Assembly (NCBI RefSeq): GCF_963855985.1
Contig: NC_087097.1
Span: 5,737,001 to 5,801,000, forward strand
Origin: Ostrinia nubilalis
Lineage: Eukaryota > Arthropoda > Insecta > Lepidoptera > Crambidae
DNA: 64,000 nucleotides
Reading direction: 5' to 3'
Shown: in pieces, positions 4,038 to 61,784 of the stretch
How the letters are laid out: each line of letters begins with the position of its first letter
Numbering within the stretch: the first letter of the stretch is position 1
Position numbers and translations under genes: made by a program
Notes under the pieces: model-generated
The model's input: only the letters and a program-made list of their open reading frames with translations
Database searches by the model: none
Told to the model about the DNA's origin: nothing

Positions 4038-4205
4038 GATCCTCCGATCCGGGCTGGAAGACGTAGCGTGGGCAGGCCTCCTACTAGGTGGACCGACGAT
4101 CTGGTAAAAGTCGCGGGAAGAGCCTGGATGCGTTCAGCGCAGGACCGTGCATTGTGGAAAACCTTGGAGGAGGCCTTTGTCCAGCAGTGGACGTCATTTG
4201 GCTGA
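4038..4205 (+). pseudogene. RTE-type LINE, 3' end of ORF
   Basis: An open frame reads GRPPTRWTDDLVKVAGRAWM and ends with QQWTSFG and a TGA at 4203-4205. This is the characteristic C-terminus of lepidopteran RTE-clade endonuclease/reverse-transcriptase polyproteins. Only the last ~55 codons remain; the 5' part is truncated, as is usual for LINE insertions. Related tails lie at 34.06, 36.4, 54.5 and 57.1 kb. Confidence 0.8.
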
Positions 4206-5622: not shown

Positions 5623-5854
5623 ATGAAATTCACGATGGTTTTCTTAAGACGGAGGACGTTGATTTTGAAAGCCGTGCTGGTGTTGACGGCGGTGTGGTTC
5701 ATGGTTGCTTTGTTGACCACAAATGGTGGGACACGGAACGCTATTGGCGCTCCGCCGATTGAGTACGAAGATCCGGAGGCGAAGCCGTTAAAGATGGCAA
5801 AGCCGACGTCTACGAAACGAAAGAGCGAATCGTATGGCAACAATCTGTCTGACG
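5623..5854 (+). CDS. Pgant9: GalNAc-transferase exon 1: start, membrane anchor, stem
   Basis: The start is the ATG at 5623; it gives [11 protein letters not shown], a short basic cytoplasmic tail. A hydrophobic segment of ~19 residues follows ([17 protein letters not shown]), the type II signal anchor expected for a Golgi glycosyltransferase. The remainder is a Pro/Lys-rich stem. The second in-frame ATG (codon 5) would shorten only the tail. The exon ends in phase 1 at a consensus donor, GTAAGT. Confidence 0.9.
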
Positions 5855-8800
5855 GTAAGTCACTACGAGTAACACAAAACGCTTGGGTGGTGTTTTAGCG
5901 GTTGCTTTGTTTCTTTTTACGTAACCTTTTAGCACTAACTTTTTAAAGGACAGGCAAAAGAAATGTACATAATATCCTTAGGTATATATAATTCTTGCAG
6001 AACATTTAATTCACTTTCCTTTATTTGAGCAAATTATTTTTTTTTTCTTTTATTATCCCTTATATTTTTGACTAATTTACTGCAAAGATTTTTTGCAATA
6101 CTTTGTTTTAGTGCCTCTTAAATACCTTAACGTAACGTTTCTCTTTCTCTGCATGCGTAACACTTTTTTATTTGTTGCTTTTTACTAGATACTATGCATG
6201 ATAATGTACGTTTGTCCATCACAGAACATCGTGCTGTCAATTGGATCGATCGGATATCTGGTTTTGAAGGTAATTTTGAAAACCATTTAGTAAAGAAAGC
6301 AAAAAAATACATCTAATTTGAAAAACATAACGTCACACTCTTGTCAAAGAACGTGTTTCATGATAATTTTCAATTTCAAACGTGCCCTGATTTCAAAAGC
6401 GAATGTGCTCATTATTAAGAATAACTTTTTGCCAGTATTTTTTTCAAATCTTTTGTCCATTCATATAACGTTATATCTCGATGAAAACAATAGAGTCTTA
6501 TAAATTATTTTACTATTACTACGTTTTATAGTTTTAATAAAAAAAGAGGTTGTTTTTATACAGGTTGTTAGGTAAATGGGTATATGAGCCGACACTAGCC
6601 CATGTTAACATGGGCATATAAATGGTATGGTGAAGTCAGAAATTTGATATCTTCATTTTAATTATTTCAATTTTCATACAAATCGGATTTCATAAAATTT
6701 TTTTTGTATGACAATTAAAAAAATTAAATGATATATCAAATTTCTGACTTCACCACACCATTTATATGTCCAGATTAACATGGGCTAGTGTCGGTTCATA
6801 TACCCATTTACCTAACACCCTGTATAAGATGACCAAGTCAAATGTTTCAACAATTTTAAAATAGTACTTGTAAAAAAACATACAATACACAGTGTATTTT
6901 TTCTAAAACTGGATAAGTATGAAGTTCTATTCCCAGAAATACTGCGGACCATTATCAATAAAACATAATGAGAAAAAATCTAGCTTTATTATCTGTGAGG
7001 AAAAAGTAAATGTGCCATTTTATTATGGGTGGTGTCTGTAATAAAATTAATAGTAATTTTATGTGCTTTTCGTTTTATTTTAATGTCGGATGTGTAGTCT
7101 CACTTTTTGCGATTCAACCGCAGATGTTCAATGGTGTCGGTGTATGTACATAACCTTTAGTTTAAAAACTGGAAATGGTGATTGGATCGTTTGGATTAAT
7201 GGTTATGGTGTCTGATTATGTCAATTACTTGTACAGATGATACTATTTTTTGTTATGAAACATCTGTAAATCAGTATCTACTTGAAGATGTATTTTTGTG
7301 ATTGTGTACCATGTTTATTGTGTATGATAAATACAATAAAAATAAAACGTTAATGTAGTTGGATATTATAAACTCAGAAGATTTTTGTCTGATTGTTAGA
7401 TGTCTTCGAGAATTATTTTGAAGCAAAACATAATGGAACCCAATTTAATACAGTCTTAATCTATAGAATTAGAAATTACTTTATCCAGCTTAACCGAGAA
7501 CAAATTGCGAGTGTTCAAATCTGTTGCCTATTTTATTACCGTTTGATGGTTCTAAAGAAATAAGATAACATTATAATATACAACCTGAATTTATTTGCCT
7601 CTGGGCTCAAGCTCGGATCAGGTACCCCAGCAATCATTCCCACGCTCGCCTTCTAAAGGATGTTACAATACTAATAGCTAATATCCTGCAGGCTTAGGTG
7701 TACTAGCTGCCCCTGGCTCGGACAATGCTCCCGGCGAACTCGGCAAACCGGTCGTGCTACCCAAGAATATAAGCGAGGATACGAAGACAGCCGTCTCTGA
7801 GGGATGGAAAAAGAACGCTTTCAATCAGTATGTCAGCGACCTCATATCGATCCGGAGGAAACTGCCCGACCCCAGGGACGAGTGGTAAGGAAATGAAATG
7901 ATAAATATAATGATACATTAGGTCCGGGAAATTGGGAAAAATCCCCGACGGATTTTAGTCTGATTTGATCCGTAGTAACGGAGATTAAGGGCGAGTTGGA
8001 GTAGTGAAATTATGTCGATCGTATCTCACGCACAACTAGTAAATAAGAATGAAGGTTTGACGAGATTTCTATACAGGTTCGGGCATACTAAAGATGAAAT
8101 CACTAAATTAAAAGCTCTGAAACATCTTATTTTAAAATAAAAAGTAATTTCTTGATTTACTTGATTTTATGTTTTTAAAGAGGTTTTTAATACAAATCCC
8201 TGTGACAGCTTGACAAATATTAAGTGGGTATTTATTAAATGTTTAAAAATCTTGTGTCAAACTGGCTGTTATTCTTTATTACTTCTACAGAACTACTCTT
8301 GGCAATATTTTCTCTTTCTTATTAATTTTTCTGTTCCCAGGTGTAAACTCCCGGGTCGATATCTTAGCAACCTTCCGCAGACGTCTGTGGTGATCTGTTT
8401 CCACAATGAAGCGTGGTCTGTACTGCTCAGGACAGTGCACTCCGTTTTGGACAGGTCGCCTGCTCATCTGATAAAGGAAATCATCCTCGTCGATGACTTT
8501 TCTGATATGCGTAAGTGCCTAATACCTTAAGTGCCTTAAGCTAGCTAATAAATAAATGTTATAGTATAGTGAGCGTCAAATAGTTCGTGACACCCAAAGT
8601 AGCCAAAAAGTTCGCAACACGTCTTTGTTATAATTGGAATATGGTTGTATGTGGCCAATGTGGGTGACACGAACTGTTTGTCACTGACTGTACTAGAATT
8701 AGCATTCTCTAAGGCTGGCTTGCACCATCTTATTTTAACTATGACAAACGTCAAAAATCTGTCAAACTCCAAAAAAAAAACAATGGTTATCGTTAAAGTA

Positions 8801-11800
8801 ACGGTCAAAGTTAGGTGGTGCAACTCAGCCTTAGGTTATAATTGCTTATAACAATAAACTGCAAACTTGCTTGCAGTTTGTTTTACGTTTATAAGTTGAC
8901 AGGTCGTATCCTTTTGCCATTAGGGTTGCAATTCGTGATTAAAAATGTAGTCGTCAAACGTGAAAGAAATTGTACGGGAATGGTGTTGTGAGGCAGCTCT
9001 CCCATTGTTTGTTTTAATTATTGTAAAAGATTTGCCTGTGTGGGTCATTTGCGCCACCGATGGTCGATAATAAAATCATATAAATAATTACCTACTAGGC
9101 ACCTATATTTTTAACGAAAGCTTCCTTTATGAAAATAAAAATTGCGTTTCTTTTGGGCAAGTTCACTTTTTCATAGTTCAATCATATTTCTATACCTTAT
9201 AATAAGCTCACTTTGTGTAAAAAAAAAACTTTTATGTTTATTAATTCTAAAAAACATTGTGGTGAAAATTATGTAAAAAAAATTTCACTTAAAAACATTT
9301 TCCTTTTCTATCCTTCATAAAAATGCAAGCGTAACAGTATCTTTATATTACGTTTAGCTAAAGTGAACAGTTCCCACGAGAGCTTTATTGTACTGGTTTA
9401 ACTCGACGTTACTTAGCCTCATTCAGACACGTAAATTTTCTTATCCAGAAATAATTTCATATTTCTAACAGCGTATAATTTCTTCCAGCACATCTGATGC
9501 AGCAATTAGATGATTACATGTCCTCGCTGCCGAAAGTTAGGATAGTGAGGGCGGCGCGGCGGGAAGGACTCATTAGAGCTAGATTGCTCGGGGCACGATA
9601 CGTTACCGCTCCTGTTCTAACGTATCTAGATAGCCACTGCGAGTGCACAGAGGGTAAGCACAATACTGTACAGCTAACGCTAAATCAGCGAAGTAAATTG
9701 CCCCTTAGGGTTGTGATCATAAAGGTCACAAGCTTATGAACAAAGGAGTTTACTGATTCGAAGTCTGCTGGAAACTTCGTGTGTTGCAATTTGGGCTGGG
9801 TATCATAATTTATGATAGTGCCGGTAGCTATTCAACAACCTATGATAAACATTAATGATCCTTATGATAAAATACTAAATATTTCGTTCAAATTCCAGGT
9901 TGGCTTGAACCGCTGCTGGACAGAATTGCACGAAACAAAACAACAGTGGTTTGCCCCGTCATCGATGTGATCGATGATAACACATTAGAGTATCATTATA
10001 GAGACTCATCATCAGTCAATGTAGGTGGGTTTGACTGGAACCTGCAGTTCAATTGGCACCCCGTACCATCAAGAGAGCGAGCGAGACACCAACATACGGC
10101 AGAGCCGGTCTGGTCTCCGACTATGGCTGGTGGTCTCTTCGCCATAGACAAGGAGTTCTTTGAGAAGCTGGGAACGTATGACAGCGGCTTCGATATCTGG
10201 GGTGGGGAGAATCTAGAACTTTCCTTCAAGACGTGGATGTGCGGTGGAACGCTTGAAATTGTTCCGTGTTCGCACGTCGGTCATATCTTCAGGAAGCGTT
10301 CGCCCTACAAGTGGCGAACTGGTGTGAATGTATTGAAGAAGAATTCCGTGCGGTTAGCTGAGGTAAACAAATCTCATTTCAATAGTTAGTTTACTATTGT
10401 TTAATGCAGAAATTACATTATTTTATTGTGTTCTAGGTTTGGCTGGATGACTACGCGAAGTATTACTATCAGCGTGTAGGTAATGACAAAGGAAACTATG
10501 GAGACGTAAGTGGCAGGAAAGCGCTGAGGGAGAAGCTTGGTTGCAAATCTTTTGAATGGTACTTGAAGAATATTTATCCTGAACTCTTCATTCCTGGAGA
10601 ATCAGTCGCTCATGGCGAGGTATGTTTAATACTTAATTACTCACAAATGTTTTTCATCAATATTAAAAAAAGATTTTTTAGAAGTTTGATTTTTAATGAT
10701 TTGGACAAATTATTGTATGCTGATGAGTGCAAAAATATTTACATGTCCTTCAAAATTATTACCTGTACAGATCCGAAATGTCGCCTTCCAAAAGATATGT
10801 TTGGACTCCCCGACGCGCAAGTCGGATCATCATAAACCCGTCGGCCTATACCCGTGTCACCGACAAGGAGGAAATCAGGTCTTCTGTCGTTTTCAATACG
10901 ACCTAACGCGGCAGTACCACTTTGTTCGAGTTTATATTTTCGTTTTTTTATTTAGTCACTTTTATGCACTCTTCCGAAGCACTATCCATGCACGGATTTT
11001 TCACAGCACATGCACGGAATGTTCTCATATTATATGACCCGTAATAGGTACGAAATGAAGCATTCCGATCTCGATTCTGCCTCGATGGGGAGTCTGAAGA
11101 GAATTCTGGAGAAGCAGTACCGTTGATGATTCATAAATGTCACCATGGTGGTGGCAGACAGGTACCTCAGAAAGGGGGAACATTGTTTGGCAAAAAAATA
11201 GAACTGGTACTAAAATTGTGTGATGAACACCATATAACTTATTCTATTATGAGGAATAAGTGATTTGTTTTCGATTTTGTTTATGTTTGTTTTCATTTCC
11301 ATTATCACAAGTAGCATGATCACTTGAAGTCAGTCCTTATGAGGAATCTTAAAGTTATAAGTCCATATCTGAAATTATATTTCAAGCTATGATGGTAAAT
11401 CAATCACGTTCACAAAAGCCCCGTTTATCAAGTGATGATGTTAAACAAGCACGCTTGCTTTTGGCACGCCTATTTAACTTATGGATGGCATCAGATCGCG
11501 AACCCATGGTCGGATATGTGCATCGACTCCGCGGCCGGCCCCGAAGACATGAAGAAATCAGTCAACGTTTGGCCTTGCCACGGGGAGTACGGAAACCAGG
11601 TTTGTCGAGGCAGCCAATTACTGTTCACACATGCTTTCGCTTACATCTTGTAGTGGTTGTTGGTGCTCATCGATTTGTGGTAAGGTTTGTGGGTATTACT
11701 GGTCAAAATCGTTTCGTCTTCTTTATCGATTTCTTTGCCAACTAATTCTCATACGTCATTTTTATCATGTGGGATTCAGTTATAAATGCAATATTAAATG

Positions 11801-13917
11801 AAAAGCGTCTTATTCATAGACGAAACGATTTGCCTCATAATAACAATATTAAAATGCATAGTTCTACTTAGCAAGTACTAATACGCAAAACATTTCCGTG
11901 TCGTACATTTCATTCAGCATTCGACACGCATCTGTTTTGCATGTTCCATTTAACTATTAATAATGCATAAAATACTATAACATTATTATAACGAATACCA
12001 TTACTGATTCATTGTTATGCAATAAACTTCCTCGTGTGTTTAAACTTCACGTAAATTCGAAAGGTTTTGAGTTTTCGCATATTATACTCTTCCAATTTGG
12101 TACTGCCGCAAGGAATTAGATATAGTATAACATATTTTTTATTATACTAACATGTATAGTATAGTCATTGTTTGTTATTTTAATTTGTAGTTACGTAAAC
12201 TGTGTGAGTTTGAGGGTATGGTTTTGGGTGAACTTTTAGGTTCATGATTTAGAATCCAGATTTTAGACATTATTTTTGTAAAGAAATTATTTGAACTTAT
12301 CTGTAGATAAAACAAAATTGAAGGTTTCCATGGGTATTTTTAGCGACAAAGTGTCCCCATAAGCCGAAATCGATAAAGGCTTCATATACACGTACGGTAC
12401 TTAACATCGTCCGGGGGCGTAAGATGTAAAGAACAAAGCAGACTTTAAGCACATTCGGCAATGTGATACCCTTATTAATCCCTTTATACTTATATCGTTG
12501 ATTTAGTATTGTTATATTTATATAGGTAATTCAAATACTTAATGACATAAAATTTGAATAATATGTCTATAAATTACATTACCTGTAAGTAATAATATAA
12601 TGAAGCATTTATTTAAAAAAAATGAAAAATTTTATGCCTTGTTACGTTTTGGCTCAAAATAACTAAATAGGTAAATAATTTCGTAACAAAATAATATTCT
12701 GATCATTTGCATAGAGCACCGCGGCAAAAGAATCATACAGTGGAGTGTAGGGTAGGTATACTTAACATTGATGAAACAAACGCTGGCTGTAACAGCGTAT
12801 TACACTTGAAAATTTCGACGGGTTCATCCAGTGTCTAAGTATCTCAGTTGGAAGAGCAGTCGCCCGGCAAGCGGAAGGTCGTGGGTTCAATTCCCGCCTT
12901 AGGCAGTTCGATTTTTTCAAGTTATTTATAATTTTCAAATCAGTGGAGGAAAAACTTATGAGGTATATCATAATATCTATGCTGTCTCTGGCTTACCTTT
13001 CATCATGCAATAATAATAATGGTTGTAATCAGGTTGCCCAGTATGCTAAAAGTCTTAAGTTCACCCATTTTATTAGGTTACTTTTGTTGGAAAGTATTAA
13101 GATAAAATATTACGCTTTGAAAATATTCTCGCTGTTTCATCCACATTTTATCAGACACATGGCTGTGGATTTGACAGCTCCAATACTTTCTTGGCGTGGT
13201 ACTAATTTTGTCAATTTGTGCCAAATGTTTGAATATATCTTTCGTGTTTTCCAGTACTGGATGTATTCCAAGAACGGTGAGATCAGGCGTGACGAAACGT
13301 GTCTGGATTATTCTGGACATGATGTGGTCCTGTACCCTTGCCACGGCGCCAAAGGCAACCAGCTGTGGTTGTATGACCCTATTGTAAGTTTTATTTACTT
13401 CTGTATAATGTTTATATGTTTAAGATAGATCTAACCACTTGGTTAAATTGAAGCATGCTCTCTATAGGATATAATATCGTGGACTGAATACGATTTTAAT
13501 ATGTCCCTCATAACTTACGAGTAGTGACATTCTTGTCTTGTTGCCAATAGGACAGGACCTTATTGATATGCCTCAGCTGTCCGTCTGTTTGTATTTTGTT
13601 AAGCCTCAAACTTGTTACATTATTCGAATAGAATAAACAATACAGTGCCCGCAATATTCTAAAATCATTAACTATTCCATTCTCTCAATACTAAGAGCCT
13701 ATATTTAGGCCTATGCTTCATGGAATATTTTAAAATATAGACTTCTATTTTCCAGACGAAGCTCCTGAAGCACGGTTCCAGCGAGAAGTGCATGGCGATA
13801 TCCCCCAATAAGGACAAAGTGGTGATGGAGACGTGCAACGAGTCTGAAACCCGTCAGATGTGGAACATGGAGAACTTCAACCCTGACAGACTGACCCCAG
13901 AGCTAACGGCCGAGTAG
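5623..13917 (+). CDS. Pgant9: Polypeptide N-acetylgalactosaminyltransferase (Pgant9-like), spliced gene with three alternative lectin exons
   Basis: The enzyme transfers GalNAc from UDP-GalNAc to Ser/Thr of secreted and membrane proteins in the Golgi, the first step of mucin-type O-glycosylation. Exons: 5623-5854, 7692-7884, 8341-8510, 9489-9653, 9899-10362, 10437-10619, one of 10771-10878, 11048-11161 or 11495-11599, then 13255-13383 and 13756-13917. Every join keeps the frame, giving 601, 603 or 600 residues, normal for the family. Residues ~12-32 form the signal anchor. The GT-A catalytic region starts near 156 ([11 protein letters not shown] at 158-168), with the metal-binding DSH at 246-248, [10 protein letters not shown] at 354-363 and the third metal ligand in VGHIFRK (His382). 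A ricin-type lectin domain with alpha, beta and gamma repeats covers about 470-590. The family call is certain. The Pgant9 orthology is inferred from the alternative alpha exons and is not proven. Confidence 0.95.
6561..6822. mobile_element. Inverted-repeat MITE family D, intact copy (intron 1)
   Basis: Starts CAGGTTGTTAGGTAAATGGG and ends with the complement, flanked by TA on both sides (6559-6560, 6823-6824). The two arms are ~110 bp each, including the shared AATTTCTGACTTCACCA. It folds almost end to end. The TA duplication suggests the Tc1/mariner superfamily. A second copy at 55.67 kb is split by a LINE. Confidence 0.85.
7692..7884 (+). CDS. Pgant9: GalNAc-transferase exon 2: stem and pre-catalytic region
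   Basis: Acceptor TCCTGCAG, donor GTAAGG. It encodes a Gly/Pro-rich stem with LGKPVVLP, followed by [20 protein letters not shown] and KLPDPRDEW. This segment regularly precedes the catalytic domain in the family. Trp142 is split across the next junction. Confidence 0.92.
8341..8510 (+). CDS. Pgant9: GalNAc-transferase exon 3: start of GT-A domain
   Basis: Acceptor TTCTGTTCCCAG, donor GTAAGT. It carries the UDP-binding start of the fold, [20 protein letters not shown], and then [10 protein letters not shown] with the conserved acidic pair. These are hallmark family motifs. Confidence 0.96.
8567..8692. repeat. MITE family B, copy 1 (intron 3)
   Basis: Inverted ends AGTGAGCGTCAAATAGTTCG and the complement of AGTCAGTGACAAACAGTTCG, with GTGACACCCA inside each arm. 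Related copies lie at 24.15 and 49.84 kb. Confidence 0.7.
8710..8834. repeat. MITE family A, copy 2 (intron 3)
   Basis: Inverted ends TAAGGCTGGCTTGCACCATC and GGTGCAACTCAGCCTTA, with the family middle ATCTGTCAAACTCC. It lies only ~18 bp from the family B copy, so two elements were inserted side by side. Confidence 0.85.
9489..9653 (+). CDS. Pgant9: GalNAc-transferase exon 4: DxH metal site
   Basis: Acceptor TTTCTTCCAG, donor GTAAGC. It encodes [15 protein letters not shown] and [14 protein letters not shown]. Asp246 and His248 form the DxH motif that binds Mn2+ and the UDP-sugar diphosphate. The phase 1 end joins GG|T of the EGW motif. Confidence 0.96.
9899..10362 (+). CDS. Pgant9: GalNAc-transferase exon 5: acceptor-binding half of catalytic domain
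   Basis: The longest coding exon. Motifs in order are [86 protein letters not shown] (the Gal/GalNAc-T motif) and [17 protein letters not shown]. His382 is the expected third Mn2+ ligand. The frame is complete, with no stop or missing catalytic residue. Donor GTAAAC, phase 0. Confidence 0.97.
10437..10619 (+). CDS. Pgant9: GalNAc-transferase exon 6: end of catalytic domain and linker
   Basis: It encodes [35 protein letters not shown] and [17 protein letters not shown], the conserved catalytic C-terminus and the linker to the lectin domain. It ends after GAG in phase 0 with donor GTATGT, so any of the three following phase-0 alpha exons can be joined. Confidence 0.96.
10771..10878 (+). CDS. 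Pgant9: Alternative lectin alpha-repeat exon 7a (36 residues, basic)
   Basis: Follows ACCTGTACAG and reads [19 protein letters not shown], then a two-His stretch, and ends [14 protein letters not shown] continues the GE|IRN signature seen in other family members. CLD (Asp481) is the GalNAc-binding Asp and CH..GGNQ closes the repeat, with QYW completed by the next exon. The loop after CLD is basic (Arg, Lys, two His, Lys); net charge over the exon is about +4. The donor is weak (CAG|GTCTTC). If the donor is not used, translation runs on into intron sequence with a hydrophobic tail. Confidence 0.9.
11048..11161 (+). CDS. Pgant9: Alternative lectin alpha-repeat exon 7b (38 residues, acidic loop)
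   Basis: Found by homology to exon 7a. After an AG at 11046-11047 the frame reads [20 protein letters not shown] and ends [12 protein letters not shown] before donor GTACCT. It aligns end to end with 7a (IRN/VRN, CLD, CH..GG.Q), has the same phase-0 boundaries and 114 bp of open frame. The loop after CLD is strongly acidic ([10 protein letters not shown]). The Asn of the usual GGNQ is replaced by Arg, so sugar binding in this repeat may be altered. Its acceptor has a poor pyrimidine tract. It could be a decaying duplicate, but the intact frame and motifs argue for function. Confidence 0.75.
11495..11599 (+). CDS. Pgant9: Alternative lectin alpha-repeat exon 7c (35 residues, mildly acidic)
   Basis: After GGCATCAG the frame reads [20 protein letters not shown] and ends [11 protein letters not shown] before donor GTTTGT. 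It matches exon 7a in phase, in length (35 against 36) and in motif order (CID for CLD, CH...GNQ). Asp480 keeps the sugar-binding position. Net charge is about -3, against about +4 in 7a. The intron to the beta exon is 1,655 bp. Joining 7a, 7b and 7c together would keep the frame but would give a lectin with three alpha repeats, so mutually exclusive use is expected. Confidence 0.88.
12835..12905 (+). repeat. tRNA-derived SINE fragment (intron 7)
   Basis: A tRNA-like A box (TATCTCAGTTGGAAGAGC) and B box (GGTTCAATTCC) are about 40 bp apart, with a CCCGGCAAGCGG anticodon-like region. The acceptor stem does not pair and the residue before the would-be anticodon is C, not T, so this is a SINE head and not a functional tRNA gene. 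Confidence 0.75.
13255..13383 (+). CDS. Pgant9: GalNAc-transferase exon 8: lectin beta repeat
   Basis: Acceptor TTCGTGTTTTCCAG, donor GTAAGT. It encodes [20 protein letters not shown], then [17 protein letters not shown]. The beta repeat has all hallmarks: CLD, CH and GNQLW. Its first two residues complete the QYW motif of whichever alpha exon is used. Confidence 0.95.
13756..13917 (+). CDS. Pgant9: GalNAc-transferase exon 9: lectin gamma repeat and stop
   Basis: Acceptor CTATTTTCCAG. It encodes [35 protein letters not shown] and a 17-residue polar tail ending at TAG (13915-13917). The gamma repeat lacks the CLD Asp (CMA instead) but keeps Cys and QMW, so it is probably structural and not sugar-binding. 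Confidence 0.95.
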   Translation, partial: TKLLKHGSSEKCMAISPNKDKVVMETCNESETRQMWNMENFNPDRLTPELTAE

Positions 13918-19580: not shown

Positions 19581-20963
19581 GTCCAGTCAATAAAGCATTA
19601 TAGATGGAAATCCGTGGAACACAATTTCTGACCTCGGGACTTTATTTAGACTAGTTAGGAGGTGAACATAGCAAAAGTCCCCGCCCTTAGCCCTTGAGCC
19701 GGCGGGAAGAGGGGGGTTTAAAGGTACCACTTTTCGGTTTTTCGCTTAATCCTCGAAAACTATGCGTCCTAGTGACATGACTACTATGAACCAAATAAAG
19801 CTTATTGAATTAGCTACAGGTGAGATGGTCAAGTTTTTCTATATCTTGTATAGTTTTCGCGACATCTGCTCTAAAAGGCCTGTAATATTGGAAATTTTAT
19901 TTTTGTCTTACATGTTCCCATCAGGAGATAATCGACTAAATCAGCATTGAGCTAATATTCTAGACCTGCGGGAGCATGTTAAGCCTAGTTCCAGGGAGGG
20001 GGCTGCACCGTGCGTATATTTAGACTAACCACTTGGAGCCACTTTTGACTCCTCATCACTCAAAAAGTACTGTGCGTTAACACTTCAAATTTGGCTCATG
20101 TGTTGAGACTTGCAAGATAAACATCAACTTCAAATTTCATAAATATACCTCAAACGGTTCTTTAGGTATTGACGTCCAAAAATCTACATGGCTGACCTAT
20201 AAGACCAAATTCTAACCACTTCCAGGTGACCTTGAAGGTTCAAATTTGGCATCCAGATAGGTTGTTGTGTAAATAAAAAGGAACAAATAAAAAACCAGTA
20301 AATTTTAACATTTCACAGGTGATGGATAGATTTTAGTGTCCTAAATGTCGATTTTTGAACGTCAATACCTAAAAAACCGTTTGAGGTATATTTATGAAAT
20401 TTGAAGCTGATGTTTATCTTGCAAGACTCAACACATGAGCCAAATTTGAAGTGTTAATGCACAGTACTTTTTGAGTGATGAGGAGTCAAAAGTGGCTCCA
20501 AGTGGTTCGTCTAAATATACGCACGGTGCAGTCCCTTACCTGGAATTAGGCTTAACATGCTCCCGCTTGTCTAGAATGTTTGCTCAATGTTGATTTAGTC
20601 GATTTTCTCCTGTTAGGAACATGTAAGACAAAAATAAAATTTCCAATATTACAGACCTTCTAGAGCAGATGCCGCGAAAACTATACAAGATATAGAAAAA
20701 CTTGACTCTCTCACCTGTAGCAAATTGAATAAGCTTTTTTTGGTTCATAGTAGTCATGTCACTAGGACGCATAGTTTTCGAGGATTAAGCGAAAAACCGA
20801 AAAGTGGTACCTTTAAACCCCCCTCTCCCCGCCGGCTTAAGGGCTAAGGGCGGGGACTTTTGCTATGTTCACCTCCTAACTAGTCTAAATAAAGTCCCGA
20901 GGTCAAAAATTGTGTTCCACGGATTTCTCTCTACACCGTCGTTAAAGCATTCATTGACTGGAC
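19581..20963. mobile_element. 1.38-kb foldback element
   Basis: Starts GTCCAGTCAAT and ends ATTGACTGGAC between TA dinucleotides. Two arms of roughly 600 bp are inverted copies of each other with few differences. One example is the pair at ~19762 and ~20772, which both encode MRPSDMTTMNQ on opposite strands. The centre (about 20170-20330) is unpaired. The TA duplication suggests mariner/Tc1 ancestry. No transposase seen. Confidence 0.85.
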
Positions 20964-55673: not shown

Positions 55674-56577
55674 CAGGGTGTTAGGTAAATGGGTATATGA
55701 GCCGACCGCGACACTAGCCCATGTTAACATGGGCATATAAATGGTATGGTGAAGTCAGAAATTTGATAGTTATCATCATTTTTTTTTTAATTTTCATACA
55801 AAATAAATTTTATTTACGTGACTCGCTTAGAGAAGTTTTTAAAGAAATCAATATACTGACTGTGGCTTCGCAATACATATTTGATAACATTATGTATGTC
55901 CGTAAACATATACATTTATTTACTAAGAAAAGTGACGTCCACTCATTTAACACGAGACATAAGAATAAACTTGCTGTTCCATCATTTAGGTTGCATAAGA
56001 TAGGTAATTCATTCTTGGGGAAATGTATTACCATATTTAACAAAATACCACACAACCTTGTCGAATTGCCAATAAACAAATTTAAGATACATATAAAAAA
56101 TACCCTTATGTCCAAAGGGTACTACAAGGTTCGAGACTATATTGATGACAAGGATGCGTGGTCAGTTCAGTCTGCACATATTTGATGTACTTAAATTTGA
56201 CTATTCTTACCGTTAGATAATTCCTGGCAATAAGTGGTGACTGAGTTTGTTCCGGCGTTTCTTCTCAGCACTTGCCATATGTTTGTCTCGAAGCGCTGGT
56301 AGGGCCCAAAAGATAAGGAGACATGTAAAGTGCCCCATAAGGGCTACCTTTTTCTTTTTTTATTATTTTCTATTGACGTTCATAAGTGCCACTTGTGGTC
56401 TAAACTGAATAAATATTTTTGATTTTGATTTTGATTTTGATTTTATAAAATCCGATATGTATGAAAAATAAAATAATTAAAATGAAGATATCAATTTTCT
56501 GACTTCACCATACCATTTATATGACCATGTTAACATGGGCTAGTGTCGGCTCATATACCCAGTTACCTAACACCCTA
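55674..56577. mobile_element. MITE family D, copy split by a LINE
   Basis: Left part (55674-~55804) and right part (~56446-56577) together equal the intact 262-bp element at 6.56 kb, starting CAGGGTGTTAGGTAAATGGG and preceded by TA. The centre is replaced by ~640 bp of LINE sequence. Confidence 0.88.
55805..56445 (+). pseudogene. LINE ORF2 C-terminus and 3' tail (jockey/CR1-like)
   Basis: The frame to the stop at 56183-56185 ends with DVHSFNTRHKNKLAVPSFRL, SFLGKCITIFNKIPHNLVEL and SKGYYKVRDYIDD, the usual region after the reverse-transcriptase domain of arthropod jockey/CR1-like LINEs. The 3' UTR ends in ATAAATATTTTTGATTTTG repeats. 5' truncation removed the RT catalytic motifs. Clade assignment is approximate. 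Confidence 0.8.
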
Positions 56578-59147: not shown

Positions 59148-60243
59148 CAGTGTGAGTCACGTTAAAGTGTACATATGAAAATAGATGAAACTAGACCTAT
59201 TTTTATCGACAAAAAAGAGGTCAAAAATTTTTTGAGATTTTTTTTTAATTTTTTATAGAATTTTTTTTCTTCCATTTACTTATTGTAAAGAAAACATAAT
59301 AACTTTTAAACTAAGCGGTATATCCTGATAAAATAAAAACAGTAATAATGCTAAATAACAGGCGATACTAAAAAAATACACAAAAAATGCCAACAAATAA
59401 TAAAAAATGATACTTTTTGAAAAAAATCTGCTTAAAAATTCGTGTTTTTTTGGTTATTTGATAAATTTCTCCAAAAAATGCCCCTATAACAGGTAGTTTT
59501 TATTACTTTGTATTATTCTCTATCGTATTATCTTTGTAAAACCAAAAATCGCATGTCTCTATCCCTATCACAACATTTGCTGTGATCGTTTGAACAAAGG
59601 CCGGCCACAACATTATTTTCCGCTGCAGGTAGAGACAATTTTAATTTTAACTAAAATGCTTATTTTACTTCGAAATCTTTTGTTTTTATTTGAAATCTAA
59701 CTTGTCTTTATCAAAATTACAAATCTAGAGCCATTTTCAGTTTCGTTCTTAACGAAACGTTGAATGGCGCGCCCGGAGAGGCTTAGTTCAAACGATCATT
59801 GCAAACGTTGTGATAGGGATAGAGACATGCGATTTTTGGTTTTACGAAGGTAATACGATAGAGAATAATACAAAGTAATAAAAACCACCTGTTATAGGGG
59901 CATTTTTTGGAGAAATTTATCAAATAACCAAAAAAACACGAATTTTTAAGCAGATTTTTTTCAAAAAGTATCATTTTTTATTATTTGTTGGCATTTTTTG
60001 TGTATTTTATGTATTTTTTTTAGTATCGCCTGTTATTTAGGATTATTACTGTTTTTATTTTATCAGGATATACCGCTTAGTTTAAAAGTTATTACGTTTT
60101 CTTTACAATAAGTAATCGGAAGAAAAAAAAATCTATAAAAAATTAAAAAAAAATCTCAAAAAAATTTTGACCTCTTTTTTGTCGATAAAAATAGGTCTAG
60201 ATTCATCCATTTTCATATGTACACTTTAACGTGACTCACACTG
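59148..60243. mobile_element. 1.1-kb mariner-like foldback, copy 1
   Basis: Starts CAGTGTGAGTCACGTTAAAG and ends with the complement, with TA on both sides. The two arms are ~480-500 bp inverted copies; the centre holds AATGGCGCGCCCGGAGAGGC. No transposase; open frames inside are fortuitous. Confidence 0.9.
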
Positions 60244-60680: not shown

Positions 60681-61784
60681 CAGTGTGAGTCACGTTAAAG
60701 TGTACATATGATAATAGATGAAACTAGACCTATTTTTATCGACAAAAAAGAGGTCAAAAAATTTTTGAGATTTTTTTTTAATTTTTTATAGATTTTTTTT
60801 TCTTCCAATTACTTATTGTAAAGAAAACGTAATAACTTTTAAACTAAGAGGTATATCCTGATAAAATAAAAACAGTAATAATGCCTAATAACAGGCGATA
60901 CTAAAAAAATACATAAAATACACAAAAAAGGCCAACAAATAATAAAAAATGATACTTTTTGAAAAAAATCTGCTTTAAAATTCGTGTTTTTTTGGTTATT
61001 TGATAAATTTCTCCAAAAAATGCCCCTATAACAGGTGTTTTTTATTACTTTTTATTATTGTCTATCGTATTATCTTTGTAAAACCAAAAATTGCATGTTT
61101 CTATCCCTATCACAACATTTGCTATGATCGTTTGAACAAAGGCCTGCCACAACATTATTCTCCGCTACAGTTAGAGACAATTTTAATTTTAACTAAAATG
61201 CTTATTTTACTTCGAAATCTTTTGTTTTTATTTGAAATCTAACTTGTCTCTATCAAAATAACAAATCTAGAGCCATTTTCAGTTTCGTTGTTAACGAAGC
61301 GTTGAATGGCGCGCCCGGAGAGGCTTAGTTCAAACGATCATTGCAAACGTTGTGATAGGGATAGAGACATGCGATTTTTGGTTTTACGAAGGTAATACGA
61401 TAGAGAATAATACAAAGTAATAAAAACCACCGATTATAGGGGCATTATTTGAAGAAATTTATCAAATAACCAAAAAAACACGAATTTAAAAGCATTTTTT
61501 TTTTTTTAAAGTATCATTTTTCATTTTTTGTTGGCCTTTTTATGTATTTTATGTATTTTTTTAGTATTGCCTGTTATTTAGCATTATTACTGTTTTTATT
61601 TTATCAGGATATACCGCTTAGTTTAAAAGTTATTACGTTTTCTTTACAATAAGTCATTGGAAGTAAAAAAATTCTATAAAAAATTAAAAAAAAATCTCAA
61701 AAAAATTTTGACCTCTTTTTTGTCGATAAAAATAGGTCTAGTTTCATCTATTTTCATATGTACACTTTAACGTGACTCACACTG
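60681..61784. mobile_element. 1.1-kb mariner-like foldback, copy 2
   Basis: Same ends, same centre and same orientation as copy 1, only ~440 bp away, again flanked by TA. A few substitutions and short indels separate the two. Confidence 0.9.

What the first reader, a model, noticed from the sequence alone, without database searches (positions are those of the whole stretch)
10771..11599. Three tandem, interchangeable lectin alpha-repeat exons in one GalNAc-transferase gene
Seen: three consecutive open segments of 108, 114 and 105 bp, all phase 0 at both ends, lie between the last catalytic exon and the beta-repeat exon. All align as the same alpha repeat (IRN/VRN/IAN start, C(L/I)D, CH, final Q). 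Known: Drosophila Pgant9 switches, as I recall, between two lectin segments, changing mucin substrate preference. Inferred: this insect has a three-way version, giving enzymes of 601, 603 and 600 residues with one catalytic domain and three specificities. The middle exon is easily missed by annotation because it is short and the same DNA is open in another frame.
Basis: partly seen in the sequence, partly recalled or inferred. Interest (0 to 1): 0.88.

Follow-up and report, generated by a model that had tools for sequence, protein, structure and literature searches.

The report
Three swappable lectin exons, one glycosyltransferase
In a moth (very likely the European corn borer), one gene for a sugar-adding enzyme carries three related exons for the same small piece of the enzyme, encoding a positive, a negative and a neutral loop; they are likely swapped by alternative splicing, which would change which secreted proteins the enzyme decorates.

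Summary
The gene is pgant9, very likely of Ostrinia nubilalis. Exons 10771-10878 (a), 11048-11161 (b) and 11495-11599 (c) have AG/GT borders and phase 0 at both ends, giving 601, 603 and 600 residues. A profile of six relatives' b exons finds 11048-11161 at E 2.1e-14; the profiles show no fourth copy in the window. The addition is exon b, seen so far only in Lepidoptera. Its loop is acidic in 7 of 7 sequences, against +2 in 19 of 21 lepidopteran a types and 0 in 31 of 33 c types. It diverges fast (mean identity 46%, against 91% and 86%). In flies the c-type exon itself is acidic; Lepidoptera keep a neutral c and have b. Not shown: junction reads, mutual exclusion, substrate effects. Listed proteins of only 6 of 55 named lepidopteran species contain b, so rare use or loss is possible. 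Verdict: new variant of a known switch.

The parts
5623..5854 (+). pgant9 coding exon 1: start codon, cytoplasmic tail, apparent membrane anchor
6225..6269 (+). optional 45-nt stem exon (EHRAVNWIDRISGFE), present in the O. nubilalis model P0067
   Evidence: tblastn 100% at 6224-6271; AG/GT borders read; inserts at the same site in Bombyx and Cydia isoforms
7692..7884 (+). pgant9 coding exon
8341..8510 (+). pgant9 coding exon, catalytic domain
9489..9653 (+). pgant9 coding exon, catalytic domain with DSH motif
9899..10362 (+). pgant9 coding exon, catalytic domain
10437..10619 (+). last constant exon before the switch, ends in phase 0
10771..10878 (+). alpha exon a: basic loop (+2), counterpart of fly 9A
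   Evidence: E 3.4e-26
11048..11161 (+). alpha exon b: acidic loop (-3), third exon seen in Lepidoptera
   Evidence: E 2.1e-14 with a profile of six relatives
11495..11599 (+). alpha exon c: neutral loop (0), counterpart of fly 9B
   Evidence: E 2.6e-23
13255..13383 (+). beta-repeat exon, starts and ends in phase 0
13756..13917 (+). last coding exon, gamma repeat and stop
10908..10919 (+). possible arm 1 of a long-range RNA stem, 29 nt after exon a (lead only)
12098..12109 (+). possible arm 2 of that stem, in the intron before the beta-repeat exon (lead only)

Best explanation
This is the pgant9 gene, in which three consecutive phase-0 exons each encode the alpha repeat of the lectin domain with a basic (a), acidic (b) or neutral (c) loop, and one of them is likely chosen per mRNA by alternative splicing, which would steer the enzyme to differently charged substrates. 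Shown by sequence: the gene model, the three homologous exons, their interchangeable phases, the loop charges, and the presence of b in predicted proteins of six other Lepidoptera. Inferred: exons a and c descend from an old two-exon switch (A type then C type recurs in insects and crustaceans). Inferred: b arose by a further tandem duplication, and if it has a single origin, before Pyraloidea, Papilionoidea and Noctuoidea split (superfamilies recalled). Inferred: the loop sits near the active site as in fly PGANT9A/B, so the a form would favour acidic, the b form basic and the c form uncharged or already glycosylated acceptor stretches. Untested: tissue-specific choice, and whether exactly one exon is used. 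Frame gives no safeguard, because skipping or double inclusion also stays in frame; exclusion would have to come from splicing factors or RNA structure.
For: Gene identity: fly PGANT9A and 9B (6e4q, 6e4r) are the best solved relatives, E 1.4e-277 and 3e-273. Exons and phases. Profile hits at the exact borders. Relatives: b lies between a and c in predicted proteins of Pieris macdunnoughi and Danaus chrysippus, before c in Leptidea sinapis, after a in Arctia plantaginis, and alone in named isoforms of P. brassicae (X4) and D. plexippus (X3). Loop charge (distinct sequences): lepidopteran a +2 in 19 of 21, c 0 in 31 of 33, b -2 to -5 in 7 of 7. The a/c pair is old: A then C in 12 of 12 parsed non-lepidopteran tandem predictions, from bee, wasps, ant, sandfly, mosquito, louse, thrips, aphid, Daphnia, crayfish and crab. 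a types form one side of a branch at 97/91. Mechanism precedent: PMC6115407, where loop charge governs peptide preference. A model of the Danaus b isoform matches 6e4r best, tied with 6e4q in the second look.
Against: No RNA reads were available. Only 6 of 97 listed lepidopteran rows, from 6 of 55 named species, contain b, and the listed O. nubilalis protein carries c, so b may be rare, tissue-restricted or lost in many. Four of the six b species are known from automatic or unnamed predictions that string alpha exons together. b diverges fast: mean identity 46% over 21 species pairs, against 91% (a, 21 pairs) and 86% (c, 10 pairs); relaxed constraint cannot be told from adaptation without relatives' DNA. 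In both trees Arctia b falls apart from the other six (one clade in 2% and 0% of 200 bootstrap trees), so it could be a separate duplication, although one clade is not rejected (p-AU 0.43). Danaus b lacks the Asp of the CxD motif. P0125, a row that did not parse, holds two C-like segments far apart, against the simple A-then-C picture. The structure model is only moderate (mean pLDDT 68; loop residues 498-501 under 50).
Confidence: 0.7

Rival explanations
1. The working switch is two-way (a and c), as in other insects; b is a decaying or hardly used duplicate.
For: b is absent from listed proteins of 49 of 55 named lepidopteran species, O. nubilalis included, and diverges fast.
Against: b is open and in phase in the window and recurs in predicted proteins of six species of two other superfamilies (recalled taxonomy), with an acidic loop in 7 of 7; a profile of those six finds it at E 2.1e-14; two species have named b isoforms.
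Confidence: 0.22
2. The exons are not exclusive: some mRNAs include two or three alpha repeats, lengthening the lectin domain.
For: Predicted proteins of P. macdunnoughi, D. chrysippus, Leptidea, Arctia and Colias eurytheme hold two or three in a row, as do 12 non-lepidopteran rows; every combination stays in frame.
Against: The five lepidopteran rows are all called unnamed protein product, while the numbered isoforms listed for Lepidoptera hold one alpha exon each; four repeats would break the three-fold trefoil (established knowledge of the fold). Among non-Lepidoptera some numbered isoforms do hold two, such as Nasonia X2.
Confidence: 0.07
3. b changes sugar binding by the alpha lectin site or protein stability, not peptide charge preference.
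For: GalNAc-T lectin domains bind GalNAc on already glycosylated substrates (PMC6115407 passage); Danaus b lacks the CxD Asp.
Against: The Ostrinia b exon keeps CLD; the charge of the loop is kept while the sequence is not; charge preference was shown for the fly pair.
Confidence: 0.25

Closest known systems
Drosophila pgant9 (CG30463) exon 8A/8B switch, Ji et al. 2018, PMC6115407
   Same: Same gene (E about 1e-277), same protein segment (alpha repeat), same principle of alternative exons with different loop charge; exon a matches 9A and exon c matches 9B.
   Different: Two exons in the fly, three here. The acidic loop is in the c-type exon in the fly and in the extra exon b here, while c is neutral. 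Expression and activity are tested in the fly, untested here.
Tandem duplicated exon events in GALNT13 / Pgant5 / gly-5, listed in PMC9741552 (section 17 read)
   Same: Same enzyme family; homologous exons substituted by splicing in vertebrates, arthropods and nematodes (named in that section).
   Different: Other genes of the family; the section does not name pgant9 or a third exon.
Docking/selector control of mutually exclusive exons, PMC6071210 (start of abstract seen in listings)
   Same: A strong complementarity joins the intron after exon a with the intron before the next constant exon.
   Different: One candidate pairing only, no convincing selectors for b and c, no conservation test.

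Membership tests
Polypeptide GalNAc-transferase (GT27), PGANT9 ortholog | GT-A catalytic domain plus C-terminal ricin-type lectin domain | tested here: met
   PF00535, PF02709 and PF00652 above cut-off in all three isoforms
Polypeptide GalNAc-transferase (GT27), PGANT9 ortholog | Closest to PGANT9 rather than other GalNAc-Ts of known structure | tested here: met
   925 and 911 bits to 6e4q/6e4r, next 557.5 bits to GalNAc-T1
Pgant9 alpha-exon switch | Alternative homologous exons encoding the alpha repeat, same phase | tested here: met
Pgant9 alpha-exon switch | Loops of opposite charge | tested here: met
   Loop +2 (a), -3 (b), 0 (c)
Pgant9 alpha-exon switch | Alternative forms expressed tissue-specifically | not testable with these tools
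   No RNA-seq held. Six unnamed short-contig (lgn) rows taken as lepidopteran hold a (5) or c (1), none b
Pgant9 alpha-exon switch | Different substrate preference of the forms | not testable with these tools
   Needs enzyme assays
Mutually exclusive tandem exons | Neighbouring homologous exons of similar length, same phase | tested here: met
   108, 114, 105 nt, phase 0/0. DNA alignment against base shuffles: a-b z 4.5, a-c 5.3, b-c 1.5; control with the beta-repeat exon 3.0, 2.4, 1.0
Mutually exclusive tandem exons | Exactly one exon per mRNA | not testable with these tools
   Phases do not enforce it; introns of 169 and 333 nt make steric exclusion unlikely (lengths, reasoning mine)
Docking/selector RNA structure | One docking site pairs with a selector by each exon | tested here: inconclusive
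   12-bp stem for a: 1 of 500 shuffles as strong, but 10 of 43 other stretches of the window have as strong a stem with loop over 300 nt and 19 of 43 with any loop. Against the same docking site, 35-nt windows downstream of b and c are matched by 1118, 2082 and 891 of 9980 background windows; one inside exon b by 60 of 9980

The most novel reading that the evidence does not exclude
Lepidoptera turned an old two-state glycosyltransferase switch into a three-state charge selector (basic, neutral, acidic) by adding a fast-evolving acidic exon, and that exon tracks lineage-specific basic cargo such as silk glues, saliva mucins or eggshell proteins.
Probability: 0.3. Interest if true: 0.75.

Novelty: new variant of a known kind. 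Interest (0 to 1): 0.55.

Why it matters
The fly work showed that one exon swap can retune a glycosyltransferase to cargo charge. A three-state version in which one state evolves quickly while its acidity is kept makes a direct test possible: whether enzyme specificity follows the charge of secreted mucins and silks. It also suggests an order of events: the a/c pair is old; acidity lies inside the c-type exon in Drosophila, thrips and Nasonia, and in a separate exon in moths and butterflies. The third exon is missing from most listed predicted proteins, so studies of Lepidoptera that rely on them would overlook one form.

Tried and rejected
Considered and rejected: (1) chance open frames: rejected by profile hits at exact borders. 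(2) Gene copy or assembly duplicate: the nearest paralog found, at C10 about 5.819-5.825 Mb, shows a single alpha-like exon, and the two intron stretches searched matched only themselves in the genome. (3) A fourth alpha exon: none found in the window. (4) RNA stem as the exclusion mechanism: strong against shuffles (1 of 500) but not against real sequence (10 of 43), chosen after looking, no relatives' DNA; kept as a lead only. (5) Search limited to 45 residues around b: two candidates, none at E <= 10. (6) Deciding whether b came from a or c: best partners differ by species, DNA favours a in Ostrinia, tree unresolved; left open.

Literature: no paper on a three-way pgant9 switch or on pgant9 in Lepidoptera showed in the listings of searches of an open-licence library; listings are capped and subscription papers are mostly missing. 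PMC12776162 (fly GalNAc-T1 ortholog) was seen in the listing only. The Plodia silk gland paper (PMC12661448, passages only) reports Pgant5; pgant9 was not searched for in it by name.

Full report
Observation. The three segments exist exactly where stated. Joined to exons 5623-5854, 7692-7884, 8341-8510, 9489-9653, 9899-10362 and 10437-10619 upstream and 13255-13383 and 13756-13917 downstream, they give 601, 603 and 600 residues, with phase 0 on both sides of every alternative. Introns around them are 151, 169, 333 and 1655 nt. Profiles trained without the window's rows (52 a, 6 b, 111 c distinct sequences) find a, b and c at these exact borders with E 3.4e-26, 2.1e-14 and 2.6e-23 in a six-frame scan of the window, and no fourth copy. 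Five relatives' a exons are identical to the window's, so the a profile contains that sequence; none is identical for b, and for c only P0067, which was left out.

What gene and species. The best solved relatives are fly PGANT9A and 9B. The window's contig is 16,894,606 bases long, the length given for the longest contig of P0067, 'putative polypeptide N-acetylgalactosaminyltransferase 9 isoform X2 [Ostrinia nubilalis]'. P0067 carries exon c and a 45-nt optional stem exon at 6225-6269, and its exons match the window at 100%. So the source is very likely O. nubilalis, and the gene is already annotated, at least in its c form. Whether the b form is annotated in this species was not seen. Isoforms with and without an insert at the site of the optional exon also occur in Bombyx mori (P0081/P0082) and Cydia pomonella (P0055/P0056).

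Relatives. Of 268 hits to residues 440-560 of the b isoform, the best 120 are listed. I take 97 rows as lepidopteran, 91 by name and six unnamed ones by sequence, from 55 named species by hand count. By content they are 54 a, 36 c, 2 b, 2 a-b-c, 1 a-b, 1 b-c and 1 a-c. Exon b occurs in six species: Pieris macdunnoughi, P. brassicae, Danaus plexippus, D. chrysippus, Leptidea sinapis and Arctia plantaginis. In P. macdunnoughi and D. chrysippus the order a, b, c of the window is kept. The other 49 species, O. nubilalis included, show only a and/or c in the listed rows. Their DNA could not be read (apart from this window), so absence there is not established; nor can predicted proteins show broken copies.

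Age of the pair. A search with a phylloxera sequence (Daktulosphaira, P0119) gave 671 hits, the best 120 listed. Alpha segments fall into two kinds: a 37-residue A type and a mostly 35-residue C type. In 12 of 12 parsed non-lepidopteran tandem rows A comes before C: a bee, two wasps, an ant, sandfly, mosquito, louse, thrips, aphid, Daphnia, crayfish and crab. One unparsed row, P0125, holds two C-like segments far apart. A tree of 59 hand-picked segments (of 261) puts all a types on one side of a branch (97/91) and six of seven b types together (100/97); Arctia b is a long branch elsewhere. In a tree of 43, one clade of all seven b appears in 0% of bootstrap trees but is not rejected (p-AU 0.43). 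Only 37 columns support these trees.

Charge. The loop between CxD and the second cysteine carries net +2 in 19 of 21 distinct lepidopteran a types, 0 in 31 of 33 c types, and -2 to -5 in 7 of 7 b types; in Ostrinia +2, 0 and -3. Other c types (mostly insects and crustaceans) lie between -1 and +1 in 68 of 79, and at -2 or below in 11 of 79, including Drosophila 9B (-3), two thrips (-3) and Nasonia (-3). The acidic state is thus in the c-type exon in flies and in the extra exon in Lepidoptera. Over the whole exon, a, b and c of Ostrinia have net +4, -1 and -3, so by that count c, not b, is the most negative; my reading rests on the loop, the part that Ji et al. place near the active site (PMC6115407 section 8).

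Rate. Over seven species, mean pairwise identity is 0.91 for a (21 pairs), 0.46 for b (21 pairs) and 0.86 for c (10 pairs; c was not at hand for D. plexippus and Arctia). b is 35 to 40 residues long. So b is kept acidic while its sequence changes. Whether this is adaptation or weak constraint cannot be said from proteins alone.

Splicing control. Phases give no safeguard against skipping or double inclusion. Acceptors of a, b and c have pyrimidine fractions 0.56, 0.56 and 0.50, against 0.56-0.78 for the other exons, which fits regulated exons but is weak evidence. A 12-bp perfect complementarity joins the intron after a (10908-10919) with the last intron before the beta exon (12098-12109); 1 of 500 shuffles has as strong a stem, and both sites matched only themselves in the genome. 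But 10 of 43 other half-overlapping 2,635-nt stretches of the window have as strong a stem with a loop over 300 nt (19 of 43 with any loop), the strongest of them long inverted repeats. It would bring a next to the beta-repeat exon and loop out b and c; untested.

Known kind. The paper on tandem duplicated exon events lists GALNT13 / Pgant5 / gly-5 (PMC9741552 section 17), so exon substitution is known in other members of this enzyme family. The three-state form of pgant9 did not show in the paper searches named under Tried and rejected, but named isoform models for two butterflies already contain b. I rate it a new variant of a known kind.

Change on recheck. The count of non-lepidopteran tandem rows was mended from 13 to 12.

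Noticed in passing
window 6225-6269: Optional 45-nt exon in the stem region (EHRAVNWIDRISGFE); Bombyx and Cydia isoforms occur with and without an insert at the same site, so the gene could make six proteins.
   Followed up: partly
window 12832-12906: tRNA-like element inside the intron before the beta-repeat exon: ARAGORN calls tRNA-Ala with anticodon GGC, Rfam tRNA 46.7 bits. As I recall GGC is unusual for eukaryotic tRNA-Ala, so it may be a tRNA-derived repeat; the genome copy search did not complete.
   Followed up: partly
L007 232-1661 (G000 C7 about 1.734-1.736 Mb): Eight tandem copies of 178 bp, 99% alike, of part of a GalNAc-transferase exon with an apparent splice donor; real amplification or assembly artefact.
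   Followed up: partly
G000 C10 about 5.819-5.825 Mb (L010-L011): A second, pgant9-like gene in the same orientation about 68 kb downstream, 51-68% identical in the matched catalytic exons, with one alpha-like exon.
   Followed up: partly
window 6570-6823 and 55709-56548: Inverted repeats sharing the stretch CACTAGCCCATGTTAACATGG, one inside a pgant9 intron; look like a small transposon family.
   Followed up: no
window 19708-20826, 59373-60008, 60713-61752: Long inverted repeats with perfect arm stretches of 88, 122 and 47 bases; probably transposon ends.
   Followed up: no
window about 4050-4205: Stretch reading like the 3' end of a LINE reverse transcriptase gene, recognised from memory only.
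   Followed up: no
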